A stretch of DNA of 64,000 nucleotides from Sandaracinus amylolyticus (GTDB lineage: Bacteria > Myxococcota_A > Polyangia > Polyangiales > Sandaracinaceae). The position numbers and the translations under genes are program-made. Where the stretch lies: assembly GCF_021631985.1 (NCBI RefSeq), contig NZ_CP070225.1, positions 1,116,001-1,180,000 of the forward strand, given 5' to 3'. The notes beneath the pieces were generated by a model, which was not told where the DNA came from, did not search any database, and was given only the letters and a program-made list of their open reading frames with translations. Numbering within the stretch: the first letter of the stretch is position 1; each line of letters begins with the position of its first letter. Below are positions 25,869 to 33,116 of the stretch, one piece after another.

Positions 25869-26414
25869 TCACTCCCCGCCGGGCGGCCGTTCGCCGAGGT
25901 TGCAGCCCGCGCCCCAGTTGGGCTCCAGCGGGTAACGCTCGCAGAAGATCTCGACGACTCGCCCCTGCCACGCGATCTCGCCCTCGATCATCGCGGTGTT
26001 GCACGCGGTGCCGGCGCGCGTGCGCACCTCGACCAGACCGCCGCCGAGGATCTCGGGGCGGCGCGCGTGGCGCACCTCGTTCGTGATCGTGTCCGAGCTC
26101 CGCACGTCCTCGAGGCGCTCTGCTGCGTCGGGCGCGATGTCGCGCTGCACGCCGCGGTAGCCGCCGATCCAGCTGCGTGCGGGCGCGGGCGCGCCGTCGT
26201 CGCAGCCCTCGAGCGCAGGACGCCAGAGATCGCGCCCCGCGCTGCGCACCGCGTCGATCTCGGCGCGCGTGCGCGCGTGGATCCAGAGGAACCCACCGAA
26301 GAGCGTCGCGAGCAGCACCGCGACCATCGCGCCCTCGGTGTGCACGCCGCCGCGCGTGTCGCGCAGCAGCGATCGCGCGCTCGGGCGTCTTCGCTTGTCG
26401 TCAATGGAGCGCAT
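25869..26414 (-). CDS. TadE/TadG-like minor pseudopilin
   Basis: A 181-residue protein with a class III (Flp/Tad) prepilin-like N-terminus. The basic leader MRSIDDKRRRPSARSLLRDTRG is followed by GVHTEGAMVAVLLATLFGGFLW. Cleavage after Gly22 would put Glu at +5, as in pseudopilins. The C-terminal periplasmic part has four cysteines (EGCDD, TACNTAM, IFCERY, AGCNLGE). It begins 14 bp inside the end of the upstream TadG-like gene, so they are coupled. It is likely a minor component of the Tad pilus apparatus. Confidence 0.72.
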   Translation of the reverse strand: MRSIDDKRRRPSARSLLRDTRGGVHTEGAMVAVLLATLFGGFLWIHARTRAEIDAVRSAGRDLWRPALEGCDDGAPAPARSWIGGYRGVQRDIAPDAAERLEDVRSSDTITNEVRHARRPEILGGGLVEVRTRAGTACNTAMIEGEIAWQGRVVEIFCERYPLEPNWGAGCNLGERPPGGE

Positions 26415-27534
26415 CACGTGCTGCCCAGAGATCGTCGGTGATGTCGGCGCACGCGCCGCCACACTCCGGCAGCACCGTGCTGCGGAGCCACTCTTCGTAC
26501 TGCGGATCCGTGATCGCGGGATCGGCCGAGCCGCCCGTCGGGAAGCGCCAGCGGCGCAGGCGGGCGCGCCACTCGGTGCGGAACGCTTCTTCCTCGACCG
26601 AGTGCTCCGCGAGATCGTCGGCGCGGTTCGCGAGATGCCACGTCGAGTAGTACTCGGCCTGCGCGACGACGACGCTCGCGACCGTGCCCATCTCGCTCGT
26701 CGATCCGCGCCCCACGTCGACCCATCGCGTGCTGAAGATGCGCGCGACGTTCACGCCCTGCTCGAGCACGCGCAGGCGCGGGCTGTCGCCGATCGCGATC
26801 ACGCGCACCTGATAGGGCTCGGTGCCGATCGGTCGGTTCGCGGGCGCGGGGACGTACGCATCGACGCCCTCGACCTCGGGGCAGTACGGCAGGTCGCGAC
26901 CGATGCGCGCGTTGTCCTCGCCGATGATGCGATACGCCATGTCGAGGCCCATCGCGATCTCCGCGAGGCGATGCGTGTGGAGGTTCGCGAGCGCGCAGAA
27001 CGCGGCCGTGCCCGAGGGCACCGCGGCCATCGGTCGGCGCACGAAGAAGCCGTGCCGCAGGTCGCGACCGAGGCGCGACCGCAGCACGCTCTCGACCTCT
27101 TCGGCCGCGAGCCGCGGGGTCTCGCGCGCGACCGCGTCGGCGGCATCGGTGCCGCGTCGCAGCTCCTCGACGAGCTGCGGCTGCATCGTCGCGCGCGCGC
27201 CCGAATAGCGGTCGAGCAGCTGGCGACAGAACCCGTCGGGCGCGGGGTACTCGCTGCGCGGATTGCCCTCGCCGGTGATGATGCCGAAGCGCACGCAGAG
27301 ATCGGCCGCGCTCTCGGTGAGCGTCGCGCCTGCGAGCACCGCGAGCGAGACCGAGCTCGCCGCGTTCACCGTGGCGATCGCGTTCATGCTCGTCGCGTGA
27401 CCGACCGCCGCGGAGAACGCGGCCTCGTCGGCCGCCTGCTGCATGCGCTCCTGGTATGCGACGGTCGCGCCCACGCCCGCGAGCGCGTAGAGCGCGCCCA
27501 CGAGGAACACGGCCATGAAGAGGCCGACCACCAT
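26401..27534 (-). CDS. TadG-like pilus assembly protein
   Basis: At least 377 residues. The N-terminal helix GGAIMVVGLFMAVFLVGALYALAGVGATVAYQERMQQAADEAAFSAA is the Tad_N/TadG pattern (a helix, then QxxADxAAxxAA). A long periplasmic domain follows, with cysteines but no clear VWA. The family's LLRDEGGAI segment lies upstream of the first ATG in the same open frame. No ATG, GTG or TTG precedes it, so translation may begin at CTG 27556-27558 or the N-terminus may be eroded. It is followed by an overlapping TadE/G-like gene. Confidence 0.7.
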   Translation of the reverse strand: MVVGLFMAVFLVGALYALAGVGATVAYQERMQQAADEAAFSAAVGHATSMNAIATVNAASSVSLAVLAGATLTESAADLCVRFGIITGEGNPRSEYPAPDGFCRQLLDRYSGARATMQPQLVEELRRGTDAADAVARETPRLAAEEVESVLRSRLGRDLRHGFFVRRPMAAVPSGTAAFCALANLHTHRLAEIAMGLDMAYRIIGEDNARIGRDLPYCPEVEGVDAYVPAPANRPIGTEPYQVRVIAIGDSPRLRVLEQGVNVARIFSTRWVDVGRGSTSEMGTVASVVVAQAEYYSTWHLANRADDLAEHSVEEEAFRTEWRARLRRWRFPTGGSADPAITDPQYEEWLRSTVLPECGGACADITDDLWAARDALH

Positions 27535-27572
27535 GATCGCGCCGCCCTCGTCGCGCAGGAGCGATGCGCGGC

Positions 27573-27578
27573 TATGCT
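27573..27578 (+). promoter_or_regulatory. -10 candidate for the antisense gene in the tad locus
   Basis: TATGCT ends 8 nt before ATG 27587, one of the clearest cases of the short-leader pattern. It lies in the short interval between the divergent gene starts. Confidence 0.4.
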
Positions 27579-27586
27579 GCGCGGCG

Positions 27587-28426
27587 ATGCAGGATCGACG
27601 CGTCGCGATCGTCGGCGCTGCGCTGATGACGTCGGCGATGATCGCGATCGCGTGGATCGGGACGCGCGAGCGCGCACCGGTGCGCGACGACGACGTGGGG
27701 CTCGGCGCGCTCGGGGCGCAGCTGCTCGACGGTGCGATGCTCGATCCCGAGGGCCCGCGCGCGACGCGCTTCCGGCTCAACGGCGTCGCGGTGAGCGCGC
27801 TCGCGGGACGCAGCGCGGGGACGTTCGATCGCGCGCTCGACGTGGCGCGCGCCGCGTGCGCATCGCCGCCGATCGATCCGCTCGCGCTCGCCGAGGCCAT
27901 GCGCGCGCCCTCAGTCATGGCGTCGGCTCCTTCCGAGACGTCGGGGATCACCAGCGTGATCCAGGACGATCGCGGGTTCGTGGTGTGCCTCGATCGCGCG
28001 TCGAGCGGCGCGATGCGCTACGCGTACGCGCGACGCGATCCGAGCGGCGTGCGCTTCGTGATCGTGTGGACGGACGCCGCGGTTCGTTACGCCGATCTCG
28101 CACACGCCGACACCCGGGGCGACGACGTGCCCGAGCTCCCGCTGCCGGACGGCGCGCGCCGCCGCTTCAGCTTCGTGCGCGAGGACGGGCGCGATCAGAT
28201 GGTGATCTACGACGTGCACGAGGATCCCGAGGCGCTCGAGCGATGGGCGCGCGACGCGCTCCCCTCGCGCGGCTGGAGCGCACCCGTCGCGTCGGGCACG
28301 GAGCTGGGCGCGCGTATGCTCGTCGCCGATCGCGGCGCGCGGCGCGTGCACCTCGTGCTGCGCGACGACGGAACGCTGGTGGCGATCGCAGGCGCTCACG
28401 GGGTCCCCCAGTCGCCCTCGCCGTAG
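27587..28426 (+). CDS. membrane-anchored protein of unknown function inside the tad locus
   Basis: A 279-residue protein with an N-terminal hydrophobic anchor (VAIVGAALMTSAMIAIAWIGT) and a soluble, presumably periplasmic part with alternating strands and helices (RFVIVWTDAAVRYADLAHAD; MVIYDVHEDPEALERWARDALP; RGARRVHLVLRDDGTLVAIAG). No family was recognised. It is the only plus-strand gene in the tad locus. It starts beside the TadG-like 5' end, and its last 31 bp overlap the end of tadE tail to tail. The N-terminal anchor and -10 candidate support it as a real gene, not an antisense shadow. Confidence 0.75.
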   Translation: MQDRRVAIVGAALMTSAMIAIAWIGTRERAPVRDDDVGLGALGAQLLDGAMLDPEGPRATRFRLNGVAVSALAGRSAGTFDRALDVARAACASPPIDPLALAEAMRAPSVMASAPSETSGITSVIQDDRGFVVCLDRASSGAMRYAYARRDPSGVRFVIVWTDAAVRYADLAHADTRGDDVPELPLPDGARRRFSFVREDGRDQMVIYDVHEDPEALERWARDALPSRGWSAPVASGTELGARMLVADRGARRVHLVLRDDGTLVAIAGAHGVPQSPSP

Positions 28427-29040
28427 TCCATGTCGCCGACGTGCAAGGTGCCCCAGTCGTCGGCCTCGATCGGGCGGCGACCGCTGGTGCAGATCAGCCG
28501 CCGCACGACCGGCACGCGACACGCGAAGCCGTGCGTGATGCGCACGCGCACCTCGGGCGGGACGGTGTCGGCGCTCGGGCGGTGCACGCGCACGTCGATC
28601 GTCGTCGCCGCGCGCACCGCGTCGGCGCGCATCGCGAGATCGGGCGTGCCCAGCGCGTCGGCGATGCTGTCTCCATCACGCGGCTCGATCGAGGCGATCA
28701 CCGTCATCGCCGCGAGCTCGATCGCCGCGCGTCGCGAGAGCGTGCGCCGGCGCGGCGGCGAGGACGCATCGTCGCGTCGCGCGAGCTGCTCCGCGAGCTC
28801 GTCGGCGGTCGCGCTGCGTCCGTCGATCACGAGCCGCGGCTCGCCCTCGTAGTAACGAGGGTCGTCGTCGAGCACGACCATCGCGGAGCGCACGGCGCGG
28901 TGCGCTGCGTGCTGAACGACCAGGTTTCCCGCGTAGAGCAGGCCGATCTGCACGAGCCCGAGGAAGAGCGTGAGGATCGGAACGAACGCGAGCAGGAACT
29001 CGACGTACGCCGCGCCCTCTTCGCTGCCCCACCGCCGCAT
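28396..29040 (-). CDS. tadE: TadE-like pseudopilin
   Basis: A 214-residue protein with a TadE-type N-terminus, MRRWGSEEGAAYVEFLLAF followed by VPILTLFLGLVQIGLLYAGNLVVQHAAHRAVRSAMV. Cleavage after Gly9 gives Glu at +5 and Phe at +6, as expected for class III prepilins. The periplasmic region is unusually long for TadE (about 170 residues) and holds a C-rich segment FACRVPVVRRLICTSG. The ATG overlaps the Flp pilin stop by one base (TGATG). The 3' end overlaps the antisense gene by 31 bp. Confidence 0.85.
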   Translation of the reverse strand: MRRWGSEEGAAYVEFLLAFVPILTLFLGLVQIGLLYAGNLVVQHAAHRAVRSAMVVLDDDPRYYEGEPRLVIDGRSATADELAEQLARRDDASSPPRRRTLSRRAAIELAAMTVIASIEPRDGDSIADALGTPDLAMRADAVRAATTIDVRVHRPSADTVPPEVRVRITHGFACRVPVVRRLICTSGRRPIEADDWGTLHVGDMDYGEGDWGTP

Positions 29041-29243
29041 CACGGCACCGGCGACGTGACCGCCTCGCGGATCGAGGCGTGATAGAGGACGAGCGGGATC
29101 GCGACCGTCGCGATCGCGAACGCGGTCACGAGCGAGACGAGCACGAGCACTGCGAGGTACTCGAGCTGGTACGCGCCGCGCTCGTCCCGATGCAGCGTGG
29201 GCTCGCCCGGCGCTCGACGCGTCTTGCTCCGGCGCATCGTCAT
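29040..29243 (-). CDS. Flp-type (type IVb) pilin precursor
   Basis: A 67-residue prepilin. The leader is 23 residues and basic, ending in DERG; the mature part begins AYQLEYLAVLVLVSLVTAFAIATVAIP. Glu is at +5 and Tyr at +6 after the Gly23 cleavage site, the EY signature of Flp pilins. The mature protein is about 44 residues and ends TSPVP. It would be processed by a TadV-type peptidase, which is not in this window, and polymerise into the adhesive Tad fibre. It is coupled by ATGA to the lipoprotein gene upstream and by TGATG to tadE downstream. Confidence 0.85.
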   Translation of the reverse strand: MTMRRSKTRRAPGEPTLHRDERGAYQLEYLAVLVLVSLVTAFAIATVAIPLVLYHASIREAVTSPVP

Positions 29244-29926
29244 CGCAGCCTCTCGATCCCGCCGCCGCCACGACGACCGCGACGGCGACGCGAGGGCTCG
29301 GCCGACGCGACCGACTCTTCGCGCGGGGCCTCGAACGGGCGAGACCAGTAGAAGACTTCGTCCTCCGCGCCGATCGTGAAGCGCTGCTCGGGGCTCGGCG
29401 GCGCGAGCTCGGGGTGCGCCGACGTGTCGATGCGCACCACGAAGCGCTGCCCCGGAGGCTGCTGCAGCGCGACGTGCGCGAGCCCTGCGACGTCGGTGCG
29501 CGCGACCACGTGGCCGTCGACCTGCACGTCGAGATCGGGGCGTCCCGCGTCGACCACCACGACCACGTCGCGAACGCGTCGATCGCAGCGCACCTCGAAT
29601 TCGAGCGGCGGGGTGGACGCCCGTCCTTCCGCGTCGCGTCGCGACCACGCGCGCAGCCGTCCACGCAGGTGCTCGGGGCGCGCGCGCAGATCCTCGGGAC
29701 AGCGCGCGACCAGCTCGAGCGTCGCGCCCTCGGGCCGCTCCGCGTCGAGGCGCAGCGTGCCGTCCTCGCCGGTCTCGCCGATCATCACGCCGCTCTCGGT
29801 GATCGCGACGCCGGAGATCGGCGCCCCGTCGCGCGACGCGCGCACCACGACGCGATGCGATCCGTGCTGCGCGGCATCGCAGCCGATCAGCGCGAGCAGC
29901 GCGACGATGCCGATCACGCGCCTCAT
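29240..29926 (-). CDS. lipoprotein of the tad locus
   Basis: A 228-residue lipoprotein with lipobox LALIGC (Cys16). The mature part looks like two carboxypeptidase-regulatory or Ig-like beta domains: DGAPISGVAITESGVMIGETGEDGTL is the typical adaptable-loop repeat, and a second copy reads PDLDVQVDGHVVARTDVAGLAHVAL. The C-terminus is Arg/Gly-rich (SRRRRGRRGGGG). It lies between the TM-TPR protein and the pilin with ATGA overlaps on both sides, so it is an integral part of this Tad cluster. It may replace the TadD-like pilotin lipoprotein, though without TPRs. Confidence 0.75.
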   Translation of the reverse strand: MRRVIGIVALLALIGCDAAQHGSHRVVVRASRDGAPISGVAITESGVMIGETGEDGTLRLDAERPEGATLELVARCPEDLRARPEHLRGRLRAWSRRDAEGRASTPPLEFEVRCDRRVRDVVVVVDAGRPDLDVQVDGHVVARTDVAGLAHVALQQPPGQRFVVRIDTSAHPELAPPSPEQRFTIGAEDEVFYWSRPFEAPREESVASAEPSRRRRGRRGGGGIERLR

Positions 29927-30582
29927 CGCTGCGCCCTCTCCGCGAGGATGCGCGCGGCGATCGCGTACGCGCGCTGGTGCGGCGCGCGCGCCGCGAGGGT
30001 CGCGTAGATCTCGCTCGCCTCCGCGAGACGTCCGCTCGCGAGGTGCTCGGCGGCCTGGCGCTCCAGCGTGTCGAGGCGCGTCGTCGGATCGACCTCGGCT
30101 GCGCGCGGCACCACGGCATCGGGCGTCGCCGTCGCGTCGCCCGCCTCGACGACCACGCGCAGCGGACCGCCCGTCGCGACCGCGCCCGAGGTGACGAAGT
30201 GCGCGACGATCACGCCGACGCCGAGCGCCATCGCCGCGCCGACCACGATGCGCCCGACGATCTCGAGCGCGCTGGGGCGCGTGCGCGCCGCAGGGAAGCG
30301 CAGCGTCGACACGCTCGGGCCGCCCTCTTCGATCGGCGTGGTGATCACGGTCTCGGGGAGCCCGAACGTGCGCGTCGGCACGTTGGCGAGCGGCGCGGGC
30401 TCCTCCTCGACCTCCGCGATCACCGTCGGAGGCAGCGTGAGCGCAGGCGGCTCTTCGGGGACCGGCTTCGCAGGTGACGACGCGGGCGGCGGCTCGGCGA
30501 CCGTCGTCTCGTCGTGGAACTCGACGTCCTCGGAGTCGGCGAGCGGATCCGTCGTCGGCTCTTTCACGTCAGAACCCGGCAT
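29923..30582 (-). CDS. single-TM protein with C-terminal TPR-like helices (tad locus)
   Basis: A 219-residue protein. The N-terminal 105 residues are acidic and Pro-rich, presumably cytoplasmic and disordered. One transmembrane helix follows (IVGRIVVGAAMALGVGVIVAHFVTSG). The C-terminal part ends in two TPR-like helices (LERQAAEHLASGRLAEASEIYATLAARAPHQRAYAIAARIL). TadD proteins of Tad systems are TPR lipoproteins; this could be a functional equivalent anchored by a helix. It overlaps tadC by 14 bp upstream and the lipoprotein gene by 4 bp downstream. Confidence 0.72.
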   Translation of the reverse strand: MPGSDVKEPTTDPLADSEDVEFHDETTVAEPPPASSPAKPVPEEPPALTLPPTVIAEVEEEPAPLANVPTRTFGLPETVITTPIEEGGPSVSTLRFPAARTRPSALEIVGRIVVGAAMALGVGVIVAHFVTSGAVATGGPLRVVVEAGDATATPDAVVPRAAEVDPTTRLDTLERQAAEHLASGRLAEASEIYATLAARAPHQRAYAIAARILAERAQR

Positions 30583-31465
30583 CGAGCCCCCGGATCACGA
30601 AGGGCGCCATCAGCACCACGAGGATGCTGCACATGACGAGCACGAGCGGCAGCATCATCAGCACCGCGGCGCGCGACGCGGCCTCCTCACCCTGCACGCT
30701 GCGACGCATGCGCAGCGTCGCGGCCTGCTGCTTGAGCGTGTCGGCGAGCGGCGTGCCCTTCTCCTCGGCCTGCTGGATCGCGCCCACGAAATTGCGCACC
30801 GGCTCGATCGGCACGCGCGCCGCGAGCTCGTCGAGCGCGCGACGCCGGGTGACACCGAGCGACATCTGCCGCGTCACGTACGCGAGCTCCTCGGTGAGCG
30901 CCTCCTGCTGCTTGCTCCCGGTCGCGATCACCTGCGCGATCGCCGCGACGAAATCGAGCCCCGCGCTCATCGCGAGCGCGATCAGATCGACCGCGCCGGG
31001 CAGCGAGCGATCGATCTCGCGCTGACGTCGCGCCGCCGTCGCGCTCACGTGCTGGAACGGCAGGTACACGCCGAGCGCGGCCGCGAACGGCACGATCGTC
31101 CCCGGCAGATCGGTGATGCGCACCATCACCGCGGCGCCCGTCGTCGCGAGCACCACGCCGAGGATCGCCAGCGCGAGCAGCTCGTCCACGTCGTAGCCGC
31201 TCCAGTCGCCGGCCTCGCGCAGCGACTTCTCGAGCCGCACCCGCGGCCCCGCGAAGGGCAGGTGCCGCGTCCACCGCGCGAGCCAGCGCACGACGGGATC
31301 CATCGTCGCGAGGAACCCACCGCGCGCGAGCAGCTCGCGCCGCCGCAGACCGCGCATGCCGAGCAGCACCGGACCGCGCACCGGCTCGGTCGCGAGCCCC
31401 CCCGCGACGAGCCCGAGCCCGCCGGCGAGCAGCAAGATCGCAGCGAACGCGCTGAGACCGATCAT
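30569..31465 (-). CDS. tadC: TadC-like inner-membrane platform protein (type II/IV secretion F domain)
   Basis: A 298-residue GspF/TadC family protein. The N-terminal helix is IGLSAFAAILLLAGGLGLVAGG and a central TM pair is LLALAILGVVLATTGAAVM plus IVPFAAALGVYLPF. The T2SSF core includes LPGAVDLIALAMSAGLDFVAAIAQV, SLGVTRRRALDELAARVP and QQAEEKGTPLADTLKQQA. A closing TM pair is AAVLMMLPLVLVMCSILVVLMAPFVIRG. It forms the membrane platform of the Tad machine with TadB. The start is ATG 31465, 2 bp after the tadB stop. Confidence 0.92.
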   Translation of the reverse strand: MIGLSAFAAILLLAGGLGLVAGGLATEPVRGPVLLGMRGLRRRELLARGGFLATMDPVVRWLARWTRHLPFAGPRVRLEKSLREAGDWSGYDVDELLALAILGVVLATTGAAVMVRITDLPGTIVPFAAALGVYLPFQHVSATAARRQREIDRSLPGAVDLIALAMSAGLDFVAAIAQVIATGSKQQEALTEELAYVTRQMSLGVTRRRALDELAARVPIEPVRNFVGAIQQAEEKGTPLADTLKQQAATLRMRRSVQGEEAASRAAVLMMLPLVLVMCSILVVLMAPFVIRGLDAGF

Positions 31466-31467
31466 CG

Positions 31468-32340
31468 CTACAGGCTCACGTCCAGGATGCGGCGCGCGAG
31501 CACGACCGCGGCCAGCCACAGACCCGCCGCGACCAACGTCGCGAGCAGTCCGACCGTCGTCGACGAGAGCGGCTCGAGCCACGCCGAGTCGATGCGATGG
31601 ATCGCGAAGAGCACGACGAACGGGATCGCGAGCATCACGTACGCCTGCATGCGGCTCTCCGACGTCTTCGCGTCGAGCACGCCCTGCAGGCGCGTCATCT
31701 CGCGCAGGCCCGCCGAGGTCTCCTCGAGGATCGCCGGGAGATCACCGCCGGTCTGACGTCCCACCAGCAGCGCGGCGAGCGCGCTCGTCACCAGCGGGCT
31801 CGCGATGCGATCCGAGAAGTCGAGCAGCGCGCGATCGAGCGGCAGGCCGAGGCGCGTCTGCTTGAGCAGCGTGTCGACCTCCTCCGCGATCGGGCCCCGC
31901 ACCACGTCGGTCGTGACCGCGAGCGCTTCGCCCAGCGAGGGCGTCGATCGCAGCGCGTTCGCGAGCGAGCCCAGCCACGTCTCGAGCTGCCCCTCGATCG
32001 TCGCGATGCGCTGCGCGCGACGACGCGCGAGCATCACCCGCGCGAGCACCACGCCGCAGATCGCGATCGCGAGCCAGAGCGCGTCCTGCACCGCCGCGCC
32101 GATCGCGCCCGCGACCATCGCGAGCACCTGCAGCGCGAGATACGCGTCGCCGCCGATCCGTGCGCGCACGAATCGCAGTTCCGCGTCGTCCTTCGCCGCG
32201 CGCTCGTTCCACGCGCGGCGCAGCGGGCTGTCGCCGCCGGCGATCGTGCCGCCCACGAAGAGCGCGAGCCCGATGCTCGACGCGATCACACCGATCCACA
32301 GCCAGAGCGCGGACACGCCGCCTTCCGCCACCGTCGTCAT
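31468..32340 (-). CDS. tadB: TadB-like inner-membrane platform protein (type II/IV secretion F domain)
   Basis: A 290-residue TadB family protein. Hydrophobic helices open it (ALWLWIGVIASSIGLALFVGG; AYLALQVLAMVAGAIGAAVQDALWLAIAICGVVLARVML). The F domain follows with QLETWLGSLANALRSTPSLGEALAVTT, KQTRLGLPLDRALLDFSDR, LVTSALAALLVGRQTGGDLPAIL and a final TM pair. It is immediately upstream of tadC and 14 bp downstream of cpaB. Its partner ATPase TadA is not encoded in the window. Confidence 0.9.
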   Translation of the reverse strand: MTTVAEGGVSALWLWIGVIASSIGLALFVGGTIAGGDSPLRRAWNERAAKDDAELRFVRARIGGDAYLALQVLAMVAGAIGAAVQDALWLAIAICGVVLARVMLARRRAQRIATIEGQLETWLGSLANALRSTPSLGEALAVTTDVVRGPIAEEVDTLLKQTRLGLPLDRALLDFSDRIASPLVTSALAALLVGRQTGGDLPAILEETSAGLREMTRLQGVLDAKTSESRMQAYVMLAIPFVVLFAIHRIDSAWLEPLSSTTVGLLATLVAAGLWLAAVVLARRILDVSL

Positions 32341-32354
32341 CACCGCCGCCGTCT

Positions 32355-33116
32355 CTACCGTCGCTCCGCGCGCGCCAGATCGTCGCTCGATCGCGAGGGC
32401 AGACCCTGGACGATCGTGATGTCGTCGGGGTTGCGCAGCACCAGCATCAGCTCGCCGCGCGCGGCCGCCACGGCGAGCGTCTGGCTCTGCTCGAGCGTCA
32501 TGCTCAGCGTCACCTGACCCGCGCGCGTGGTGCCCTGACGATCGCGCCGCAGATCCGCGCCGATGTCCGCGCCCGTCGCGAGGACGAGCGCGTTCTGCAG
32601 GATCGTCGACGCGACGTCGTGGTTGCCCTCGCGCGTCGTGAGCACGACGTCGACGCGATCGCCGGGCCTCAAGAGCCCGCCGAACGTCGATGTCGCGTCC
32701 GCCTCGATGCTCACCGCGCGCTGTCCGTCGCGCACCAGGCTCGAGAGATCGCGATGCTCCTCCGACGTCACGAGATCGGACCACAGGAGCGTCTCGCCCG
32801 CGCGCAGCGCGCTGGACACGCGCACGCCGACGACACGCGGCACGTCGGCGCCGCGCACGTGGCGCTGCTCGACGTAGCGCTCGGGCATGTCCTGCGTCGC
32901 GAGCGCGTCCTCGCGCAGCGGAGTCCCGAGCGGCACGTCGCGCGTCACGACCGCGACCTGCACGTACGCGCCGCCCGTCACGTGCTGCTCGTACTGCTGC
33001 ATGTAGACGAAGAGGCACCCGGCCCCGAGCGCCATGCACACCACGCCCGCGACCACCGCTCTGCTGCGCTGCGCAGCAGGCTCGTTGCGGGCGTTCGACT
33101 CGACTCGTCCCGACAC
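32355..33116 (-). CDS. cpaB: CpaB/RcpC Flp pilus assembly protein with SAF domain
   Basis: A 253-residue protein starting at GTG 33114-33116. One N-terminal TM helix (VVAGVVCMALGAGCLFVYMQQY) is followed by the SAF/CpaB domain: VQVAVVTRDVPLGTPLREDALATQDMPERY, VVGVRVSSALRAGETLLWSDL, and the CpaB motif LVRDGQRAVSIEADATSTFGGLLRPGDRVDVVLT, then LSMTLEQSQTLAVAAARGELMLVLRNP. CpaB/RcpC works in the periplasm with the secretin. GAGGAGG precedes the start, and a -10 candidate and dyad sit just upstream, so this is the first gene of the tad operon here. Confidence 0.92.
   Translation of the reverse strand: MSGRVESNARNEPAAQRSRAVVAGVVCMALGAGCLFVYMQQYEQHVTGGAYVQVAVVTRDVPLGTPLREDALATQDMPERYVEQRHVRGADVPRVVGVRVSSALRAGETLLWSDLVTSEEHRDLSSLVRDGQRAVSIEADATSTFGGLLRPGDRVDVVLTTREGNHDVASTILQNALVLATGADIGADLRRDRQGTTRAGQVTLSMTLEQSQTLAVAAARGELMLVLRNPDDITIVQGLPSRSSDDLARAERR

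What the first reader, a model, noticed from the sequence alone, without database searches (positions are those of the whole stretch)
25869..33116. Incomplete Tad pilus locus lacking its motor and outer-membrane pore
cpaB, tadB, tadC, a Flp pilin, TadE and two TadG/E-like genes are present in one block, but tadA, tadZ, the secretin and the prepilin peptidase are not in the window. The usual TadD is apparently replaced by a TM protein with TPR-like helices plus an Ig-like lipoprotein. Such a split locus could depend on a second chromosomal site.
Basis: partly seen in the sequence, partly recalled or inferred. Interest (0 to 1): 0.5.

Follow-up and report, generated by a model that had tools for sequence, protein, structure and literature searches.

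The report
Tad pilus module without its motor
This bacterium carries one complete Tad-pilus machine and three satellite gene sets, one of them in this window, that keep the machine's inner-membrane base and tip proteins but lack its motor and outer-membrane pore, so they most likely borrow those parts from the complete set.

Summary
The block at 25869-33116 is a real Tad gene set: CpaB, TadB, TadC, an Flp pilin and three TadE/G/F-like minor pilins. It has no Tad ATPase, Tad secretin or prepilin peptidase. It is no assembly error: a second genome of the genus has the same set (82-100% identity).

The genome holds one complete Tad locus (B: secretin, two CpaF ATPases, peptidase, TadD) and three satellites lacking motor and secretin: A (this one), C and D. 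In other genomes, 61 of 62 distinct loci with cpaB and tadB have secretin and ATPase between them; the exception groups with A in the tree. Pooled dN/dS is 0.12-0.14 for all four loci, and satellite TadB/TadC keep four conserved glycine motifs that I equate with the reported CpaF contact.

Best reading: satellites are alternative platform-plus-tip modules, driven in trans by B's motor and pore. Against it: A's CpaB lacks the C-terminal tail that in Pseudomonas RcpC is essential and modelled on the secretin.

The plan resembles the two-cluster Kil system of Myxococcus xanthus, but here the platform is multiplied too. Corrections: TadD is absent, not replaced; the "TPR" protein is FHA2 without its FHA domain; a plus-strand gene inside the block belongs to it.

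The parts
32355..33116 (-). CpaB/RcpC (KilB-like), alignment-ring protein; start could be as late as 33056; short C-terminus
   Evidence: PF16976 7.2e-26, PF08666; TIGR03177; PDB 9gzr RcpC 1.1e-5; tail
31468..32340 (-). TadB (CpaG/KilG-like) inner-membrane platform
   Evidence: PF00482 5.4e-13; 43% to B.TadB; glycine motifs
30569..31465 (-). TadC (CpaH/KilH-like) inner-membrane platform
   Evidence: PF00482 2.3e-15; 41-44% to B.TadC; glycine motifs
29923..30582 (-). FHA2-family protein without its FHA domain (TM plus C-terminal helices); not TadD
   Evidence: hhalign to FHA2 prob 96.5, E 8.6e-10; no match to FHA1, TadD
29240..29926 (-). Ig/Fn3-like lipoprotein that follows FHA2 in loci B and C too
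   Evidence: 38% to B and 37% to C counterparts; weak Fn3_arc below cut-off
29040..29243 (-). Flp1-type pilin (position as KilK adapter pilin), prepilin site G/AYQLE
   Evidence: matches B and C flp1, 6.9e-5 and 1.5e-4; sequence
28396..29040 (-). TadE / KilL-like minor pilin
   Evidence: PF07811 6.2e-7; 34% to B.L
27587..28426 (+). Protein X, conserved Tad-locus protein, here inverted between L and N; two-domain alpha/beta model
   Evidence: homologous to B, C, D X proteins, 6e-13 to 1.6e-7; same inversion in G001; model pLDDT 75
26401..27558 (-). TadG / KilN-like minor pilin; no ATG/GTG/TTG start just upstream of the pilin helix, start codon unresolved
   Evidence: PF13400 below cut-off; homologous to B.N, C.N, D.N; start region in two genomes
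25869..26405 (-). TadF / KilM-like small minor pilin, prepilin site G/GVHTE
   Evidence: weak match to C.M (7e-4); 40% to D.M over 68 aa for the G001 ortholog

Best explanation
Locus A is a functional satellite Tad module. It encodes an inner-membrane platform (TadB/TadC), its alignment ring (CpaB), an adapter pilin and a TadE/G/F tip trio with their accessory proteins, and leaves the cytoplasmic motor (two CpaF ATPases), the secretin with its TadD pilotin, the major pilin and the prepilin peptidase to other loci, chiefly the one complete Tad locus B. With satellites C and D it gives the cell four alternative platform-plus-tip assemblies for one engine and one pore. Shown: gene content, its conservation in a second genome, purifying selection, absence of other Tad-type motor or secretin genes in the genome at the search thresholds. 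Inferred: that the products meet in one machine, that the tip is exposed on a pilus, and any role in contact killing.
For: Genome-wide counts: four TadB/TadC pairs but one Tad secretin and two CpaF-type ATPases, both in B. The other eight T2SSE matches are five PilT-family, PilB, GspE and one FHA fusion whose P-loop lacks the lysine. A, C and D all lack secretin and ATPase, and so do their G001 orthologs. In 62 distinct loci from other genomes with cpaB and tadB, 61 have both between them. Pooled dN/dS A 0.121, B 0.139, C 0.138, D 0.139. The glycine motifs of TadB and TadC that I equate with the CpaF contact described in PMC11300603 (passages) are kept in A, C, D and L085. Satellite CpaB/TadB/TadC keep 80-98% of positions conserved in 21 complete loci. 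A has prepilin sites but no peptidase. [quoted passage not shown]
Against: A's CpaB ends 26 residues after the RNPDD motif; of 69 CpaBs from loci with CpaC or CpaF, 67 have 35 or more. In Pseudomonas RcpC this C-terminal hairpin is essential in vivo and is modelled on the secretin, although RcpC without it still co-purified with the secretin domain (PMC12307814, passages); in Caulobacter it is modelled on CpaI (PMC13170226, passages). Two complete loci (L106, L122) also have short tails, so the tail is not always needed. A's TadB keeps 41 of 51 conserved positions, as low as the lowest of 21 complete loci, and one TadC glycine present in 20 of 21 complete loci is lost in A, C and L085. No expression, interaction or phenotype data. 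A single origin of all satellites is not rejected (AU p 0.463), so their recurrence is not independent evidence.
Confidence: 0.57

Rival explanations
1. A's subunits do not form a machine of their own. They mix into B's machine: TadB_A/TadC_A and CpaB_A join B's oligomers, and the A tip is loaded as an alternative tip, as in the Kil system where several tips share one platform.
For: In M. xanthus four KilLMN tip sets serve one KilGH platform (PMC12075869, sections 4, 6, 8). A's short CpaB tail could be supplied by B subunits in a mixed ring. CpaB is the component of A most similar to B (53%).
Against: Tip paralogs elsewhere need no platform copies; A, C and D all keep their own CpaB, TadB and TadC under purifying selection. 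TadB/TadC of A are only 41-44% identical to B's.
Confidence: 0.22
2. A works without crossing the outer membrane: a short periplasmic pseudopilus or a tip-priming station, driven by some ATPase, that lost its secretin, pilotin, major pilin and secretin-facing CpaB tail together.
For: A lacks secretin, TadD, flp2, peptidase, FHA1 and the FHA part of FHA2, and CpaB lacks the tail; the A relative L085 lacks secretin, ATPase and tail as well.
Against: It keeps a TadE/G/F tip set, and complete loci L106 and L122 have short CpaB tails next to their own secretin.
Confidence: 0.13
3. A is a decaying remnant of a once complete locus.
For: Missing genes; long branch; one conserved gene inverted, no clear start codon for the TadG-like gene.
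Against: Frames of the called genes are open in two genomes; pooled dN/dS 0.121, as low as the complete locus; CpaB has no amino-acid change between the two genomes.
Confidence: 0.04
4. A uses another motor and pore of the cell, those of the type IVa pilus or the type II system.
For: PilB/PilT/PilQ and a type II locus exist.
Against: TadB/TadC keep Tad-type motifs and pair in evolution with CpaF; PilB and GspE sit with or belong to their own systems.
Confidence: 0.04

Closest known systems
Kil system of Myxococcus xanthus (kil clusters I and II, Tad-like predation pilus)
   Same: By the papers' description (PMC8460266 sections 7 and 11 and passages; PMC12075869 abstract, sections 4, 6, 8, 16, 26 and passages): Tad genes split over two loci, one with secretin and an FHA-fused ATPase, the other with CpaB, both platform proteins, an Flp adapter (KilK) and a tip trio in the order KilL-KilN-KilM. 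Locus A has CpaB, TadB, TadC, Flp, L, N, M in that order, with X inverted between L and N.
   Different: Here the locus with motor and secretin (B) is itself complete, with its own platform and tip; there are three satellites; B has two ATPases and a TadD, which Kil lacks. No M. xanthus sequence was compared.
Kil tip clusters (Tip1-Tip4)
   Same: Several minor-pilin trios for one motor and pore.
   Different: Tip clusters carry minor pilins (tip3 also an Flp); satellites A, C and D carry CpaB, TadB and TadC too.
Canonical single-locus Tad/Flp pilus
   Same: Locus B and 61 of 62 comparison loci have one contiguous set; A's components are homologous to B's.
   Different: A lacks tadA, secretin, tadD and peptidase. 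[quoted passage not shown]

Membership tests
Tad / Flp (T4c) pilus, as a self-contained locus | CpaB/RcpC | tested here: met
Tad / Flp (T4c) pilus, as a self-contained locus | TadB and TadC, each with a single T2SSF domain | tested here: met
Tad / Flp (T4c) pilus, as a self-contained locus | Flp pilin and TadE/F/G minor pilins | tested here: met
   TadE over cut-off; Flp, TadG and TadF by homology to B/C/D and prepilin sites, not by Pfam cut-off
Tad / Flp (T4c) pilus, as a self-contained locus | TadA/CpaF ATPase in the locus | tested here: not met
   nearest in locus B
Tad / Flp (T4c) pilus, as a self-contained locus | Secretin RcpA/CpaC in the locus | tested here: not met
   the secretin 13 kb left of the window is PilQ
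Tad / Flp (T4c) pilus, as a self-contained locus | Prepilin peptidase in the locus (often apart in Tad systems) | tested here: not met
   copies in B, C, D and at C1:3006356
Tad / Flp (T4c) pilus, as a self-contained locus | TadZ/CpaE | not tested
   no family search was made
Kil system (M. xanthus) | Motor and platform genes in separate loci | tested here: met
   A, C and D versus B; but B is complete by itself
Kil system (M. xanthus) | ATPase with N-terminal FHA domain | tested here: met
   B ATPase 1: FHA 1.9e-14 plus T2SSE 1.4e-63; feature from PMC8460266 passage
Kil system (M. xanthus) | Single ATPase, no TadD | tested here: not met
   B has two CpaF ATPases and a TPR lipoprotein in TadD position
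Kil system (M. xanthus) | Tip trio order L-N-M with KilK-like Flp beside the platform genes | tested here: met
   order, against the gene numbers given in PMC12075869 section 8
Kil system (M. xanthus) | Sequence relationship to KilB/G/H/K/L/M/N | not tested
   no M. xanthus sequence was obtained; the named collection's best 80 loci hold no record titled Myxococcus
Kil system (M. xanthus) | Partner T3SS* cluster | tested here: inconclusive
   one FHIPEP gene, without T3SS-like neighbours that I recognised by eye; other T3SS families not searched
Kil system (M. xanthus) | Needed for contact-dependent prey killing | not testable with these tools
   needs mutants

The most novel reading that the evidence does not exclude
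One engine, several nozzles: a bacterium that runs four different Tad platforms, each with its own alignment ring and tip, from one motor/secretin locus, as exchangeable weapon modules. One module (D) encodes proteins in which a prepilin module is fused to a toxin-like domain, candidates for the unidentified killing factors of Tad predation machines.
Probability: 0.27. Interest if true: 0.78.

Novelty: new variant of a known kind. Interest (0 to 1): 0.52.

Why it matters
Tad systems are described as almost always encoded in one locus, and the two-cluster Kil system was called a unique situation when it was found. Stable satellites that multiply the membrane platform and tip but not the motor or pore would make a long-open question testable: whether one Tad ATPase and secretin can serve several platforms, and what decides which tip is shown. 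[quoted passage not shown] the prepilin-toxin fusions next to satellite D are candidates. Interest is tempered because sharing is inferred from gene content alone and because the A module lacks the CpaB tail.

Tried and rejected
Assembly error or missing neighbours: rejected, because the same block occurs in G001, a one-contig genome, and the fetched flanks (18 kb left, 15 kb right) gave only PilQ and an activator-like protein as matches.

Two independent origins of the satellites: I held this after the first tree (A+L085 90, C+D 100). The check (29 loci that have all three genes, other model) does not reject one clade of all satellites (AU p 0.463), so I dropped it and lowered the main odds slightly. 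Grouping of A with the family's complete loci has only 61 support and is absent.

Orphan ATPase as a motor for the satellites: C1:8767304-8769574 is an FHA protein with a TadA-like domain whose P-loop reads GASELGVG, without the lysine; rejected as an active motor from sequence.

TadD replacement: rejected. Sigma-54 box upstream of A: none found in 344 bases.

Structure work: the model of the TadG-like protein is poor (pLDDT 59) and was not searched. The model of X (pLDDT 75) gave no Foldseek match at 0.001 or better; the second look gave DcrB at Z 9.1 over 88 residues (3 units above nothing else of note: PsbP 7.0), a lead only.

Named relatives: the one genome-contig scan kept 80 of 118 loci and gave no record titled Myxococcus, so no direct comparison with M. 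xanthus Kil was possible. Literature: searches showed no paper on motorless Tad satellites in the listings; PMC10196010 (passages) reports Tad-like genes in Sandaracinus.
Full report
Observation. The minus-strand block 25869-33116 was re-read with a codon-usage gene caller and family libraries. It encodes CpaB, TadB, TadC, a TM protein, an Ig/Fn3-like lipoprotein, a 67-aa Flp-type pilin, TadE, a TadG-like and a small TadF-like protein. It is homologous to a protein (here X) found in every other Tad locus of this genome (E 6e-13 to 1.6e-7), so it is an inverted member of the set. The same inversion occurs in G001 (tblastn, 89%). The TadG-like gene has no ATG, GTG or TTG just upstream of its pilin helix in either genome; its start is unresolved.

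What the genome holds. The window is C1:1116001-1180000 of a 10.96-Mb genome in two contigs. Domain searches found 12 T2SSF matches: eight form four TadB/TadC pairs, the other four lie in two genes beside PilT- and GspE-type ATPases. There are three secretin genes: PilQ, one beside GspE and so taken as GspD by position, and one in locus B. There are ten T2SSE matches (all 85 candidates scored): two in B, five PilT family, one PilB, one GspE, and one FHA fusion with a P-loop that lacks its lysine. There are four A24 peptidases: in B, C, D and at C1:3006356. Five RcpC genes mark loci A, B, C, D and an orphan, E.

The loci. B (C1:8031786-8048824): flp1, flp2, prepilin peptidase, TadE, TadG, TadF, X, CpaB, secretin, FHA-CpaF, TadB, TadC, FHA1, TadD, CpaF2, FHA2, lipoprotein. 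C (4757822-4768754) has the same without secretin, both ATPases and TadD. D (6698450-6713176) lacks them too, and has kinase and FHA genes between its two halves. A lacks in addition flp2, peptidase and FHA1. A's TM protein aligns with the C-terminal half of FHA2 (hhalign probability 96.5, E 8.6e-10) and not with FHA1 or TadD. It is therefore FHA2 without its FHA domain, followed by the lipoprotein that also follows FHA2 in B and C. A thus keeps membrane, periplasmic and tip parts and has lost the cytoplasmic ones.

Conservation. G001, same genus, one contig of 10,327,335 bases, has orthologs of all five loci with the same presence and absence of motor and secretin. A's proteins are 82-100% identical between the two genomes (X 89%). 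Pooled dN/dS (Nei-Gojobori) is 0.121 for A without X, 0.139 for B, 0.138 for C and 0.139 for D; X alone gives 0.307 and A's FHA2 remnant 0.355. The block is maintained.

Comparison with other Myxococcota. Loci around CpaB or TadC hits were fetched from other genomes and scanned with models built from A-D and G001. After dropping 14 duplicates, 62 distinct loci have cpaB and tadB on one strand within 9 kb; 61 have secretin and CpaF between them. The exception, L085, is a 5.2-kb contig of G003, same family, and it groups with A (90, 97). A TadC model at E 1e-25 or better over 188 phylum genomes (12 candidates scored per genome) found four copies only in G000 and G001. G007 of the family has one, and each of the 20 same-order genomes with a match has one. 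Several more distant genomes have two or three weaker matches. A CpaF model at 1e-60 found two in G000 and in G001 (371 genomes, five candidates scored per genome). So motorless satellites look confined to this genus and one relative in the sample. Whether A and C/D lost the motor separately cannot be told: one clade of all satellites is not rejected (AU p 0.463).

Mechanism. In Caulobacter the contact with CpaF is modelled on glycines at the tips of the CpaG and CpaH helices (PMC11300603, passages). I equate these with the SLG and TGG motifs of TadB and the AGL and EEKG motifs of TadC; the equation is mine, not from numbered residues. All four motifs are kept in A, C, D and L085. A further TadC glycine, present in 20 of 21 complete loci, is changed in A, C and L085. 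Satellites keep 80-98% of positions that are at least 90% conserved in 21 complete loci, at the low end of the complete loci's own range (A CpaB 37 of 41, TadB 41 of 51, TadC 41 of 46). This favours a platform that still works with a CpaF-type motor, and B encodes the only intact ones found. TadE, TadF and Flp1 of A have prepilin sites, which peptidases of B, C or D could process.

Evidence against. A's CpaB stops 26 residues after its RNPDD motif and L085's 31 after. Of 69 CpaBs from loci with CpaC or CpaF, two (L106, L122) are shorter than 35 by this measure, which is crude for a few rows. C and D keep longer tails. In Pseudomonas the C-terminal hairpin is essential in vivo and modelled on the secretin, yet RcpC without it still co-purified with the secretin domain (PMC12307814, passages); in Caulobacter it is modelled on CpaI (PMC13170226, passages). 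A may dock differently, mix with B's CpaB, or not use the pore.

Relation to Kil. Seef 2021 (PMC8460266; sections 7 and 11, passages) and Herrou 2025 (PMC12075869; abstract, sections 4, 6, 8, 16, 26, passages) describe a Tad-like pilus split over two clusters, with an FHA-fused ATPase, and four minor-pilin tips for one platform. Locus A has the gene set and order of cluster II (CpaB, platform, Flp, L-N-M). B shares the FHA-CpaF fusion but has a second ATPase and TadD, which Kil lacks. Sandaracinus was reported to have Tad-like genes (PMC10196010, passages). I could not compare sequences with M. xanthus. The genome's one FHIPEP gene stands apart from any T3SS-like genes that I recognised. So: works like a Kil-type module, likely; membership in Kil is not shown.

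Side finding that bears on function. Locus D encodes C1:6705082-6706011, a prepilin-like N-terminus, an RD-repeat linker and a C-terminal Tox-HDC domain (PF15656, 25.5 bits, cut-off 21). Beside its TadF gene is a second protein with the same N-terminus and linker and another C-terminus. A third, at 10388700-10389875, ends in Peptidase_M91 (PF14891, 1.6e-21). All three have G001 counterparts. One N-terminus with three different ends is the layout of polymorphic toxins. Flp-pilin fusions of another toxin domain are mentioned in PMC12605009 (one passage). Delivery by the Tad machines is inference.

Verdict. The block is a conserved, selected satellite of a complete Tad locus, one of three, and not a broken or mis-assembled locus. 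Trans use of B's motor and pore is the likeliest mechanism (0.57; lowered slightly), with mixing into B's machine as the main rival.

Noticed in passing
G000:C1:6705082-6706011, 6713562-6714341, 10388700-10389875: Three proteins share a prepilin-like N-terminus and RD-repeat linker but end in Tox-HDC, an unknown domain and Peptidase_M91; the first two lie in or beside Tad satellite D. Candidate pilus-borne toxins.
   Followed up: partly
G016: L212, L217, L220: Frames with an Flp-like N-terminus (PF04964 below cut-off in two), long low-complexity stretches and large C-terminal regions, in another family of the order; possibly the same kind of fusion.
   Followed up: partly
upstream of flp1 in C and D and of the TadF-X-CpaB group in D: Sigma-54-like boxes (TGGCACGCGTGCTGC and close variants), also upstream of flp1 of C and D in G001; none upstream of A cpaB or B flp1; the same pattern occurs 3 times on both strands of the 64-kb window. 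D also encodes an FHA/sigma-54 activator and two Ser/Thr kinases.
   Followed up: partly
G000:C1:8767304-8769574 (L037:7305-9575): Orphan FHA protein with a TadA-like ATPase domain whose P-loop lacks the lysine.
   Followed up: partly
G000:C1:8488672-8489571 (locus E): Orphan CpaB without other Tad genes around it; similar CpaB-only places in G001 and in seven fetched family loci: L083, L086, L088, L091, L093, L095 and, cut by a contig end, L097.
   Followed up: partly
window 27535-27600: Divergent X and TadG-like genes overlap at their starts; neither genome shows an ATG, GTG or TTG for the TadG-like gene near its pilin helix.
   Followed up: partly
G000:C1:1716868-1718709: The genome's only FHIPEP (FlhA/SctV family) gene found, standing among genes that look like housekeeping genes by eye.
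   Followed up: no
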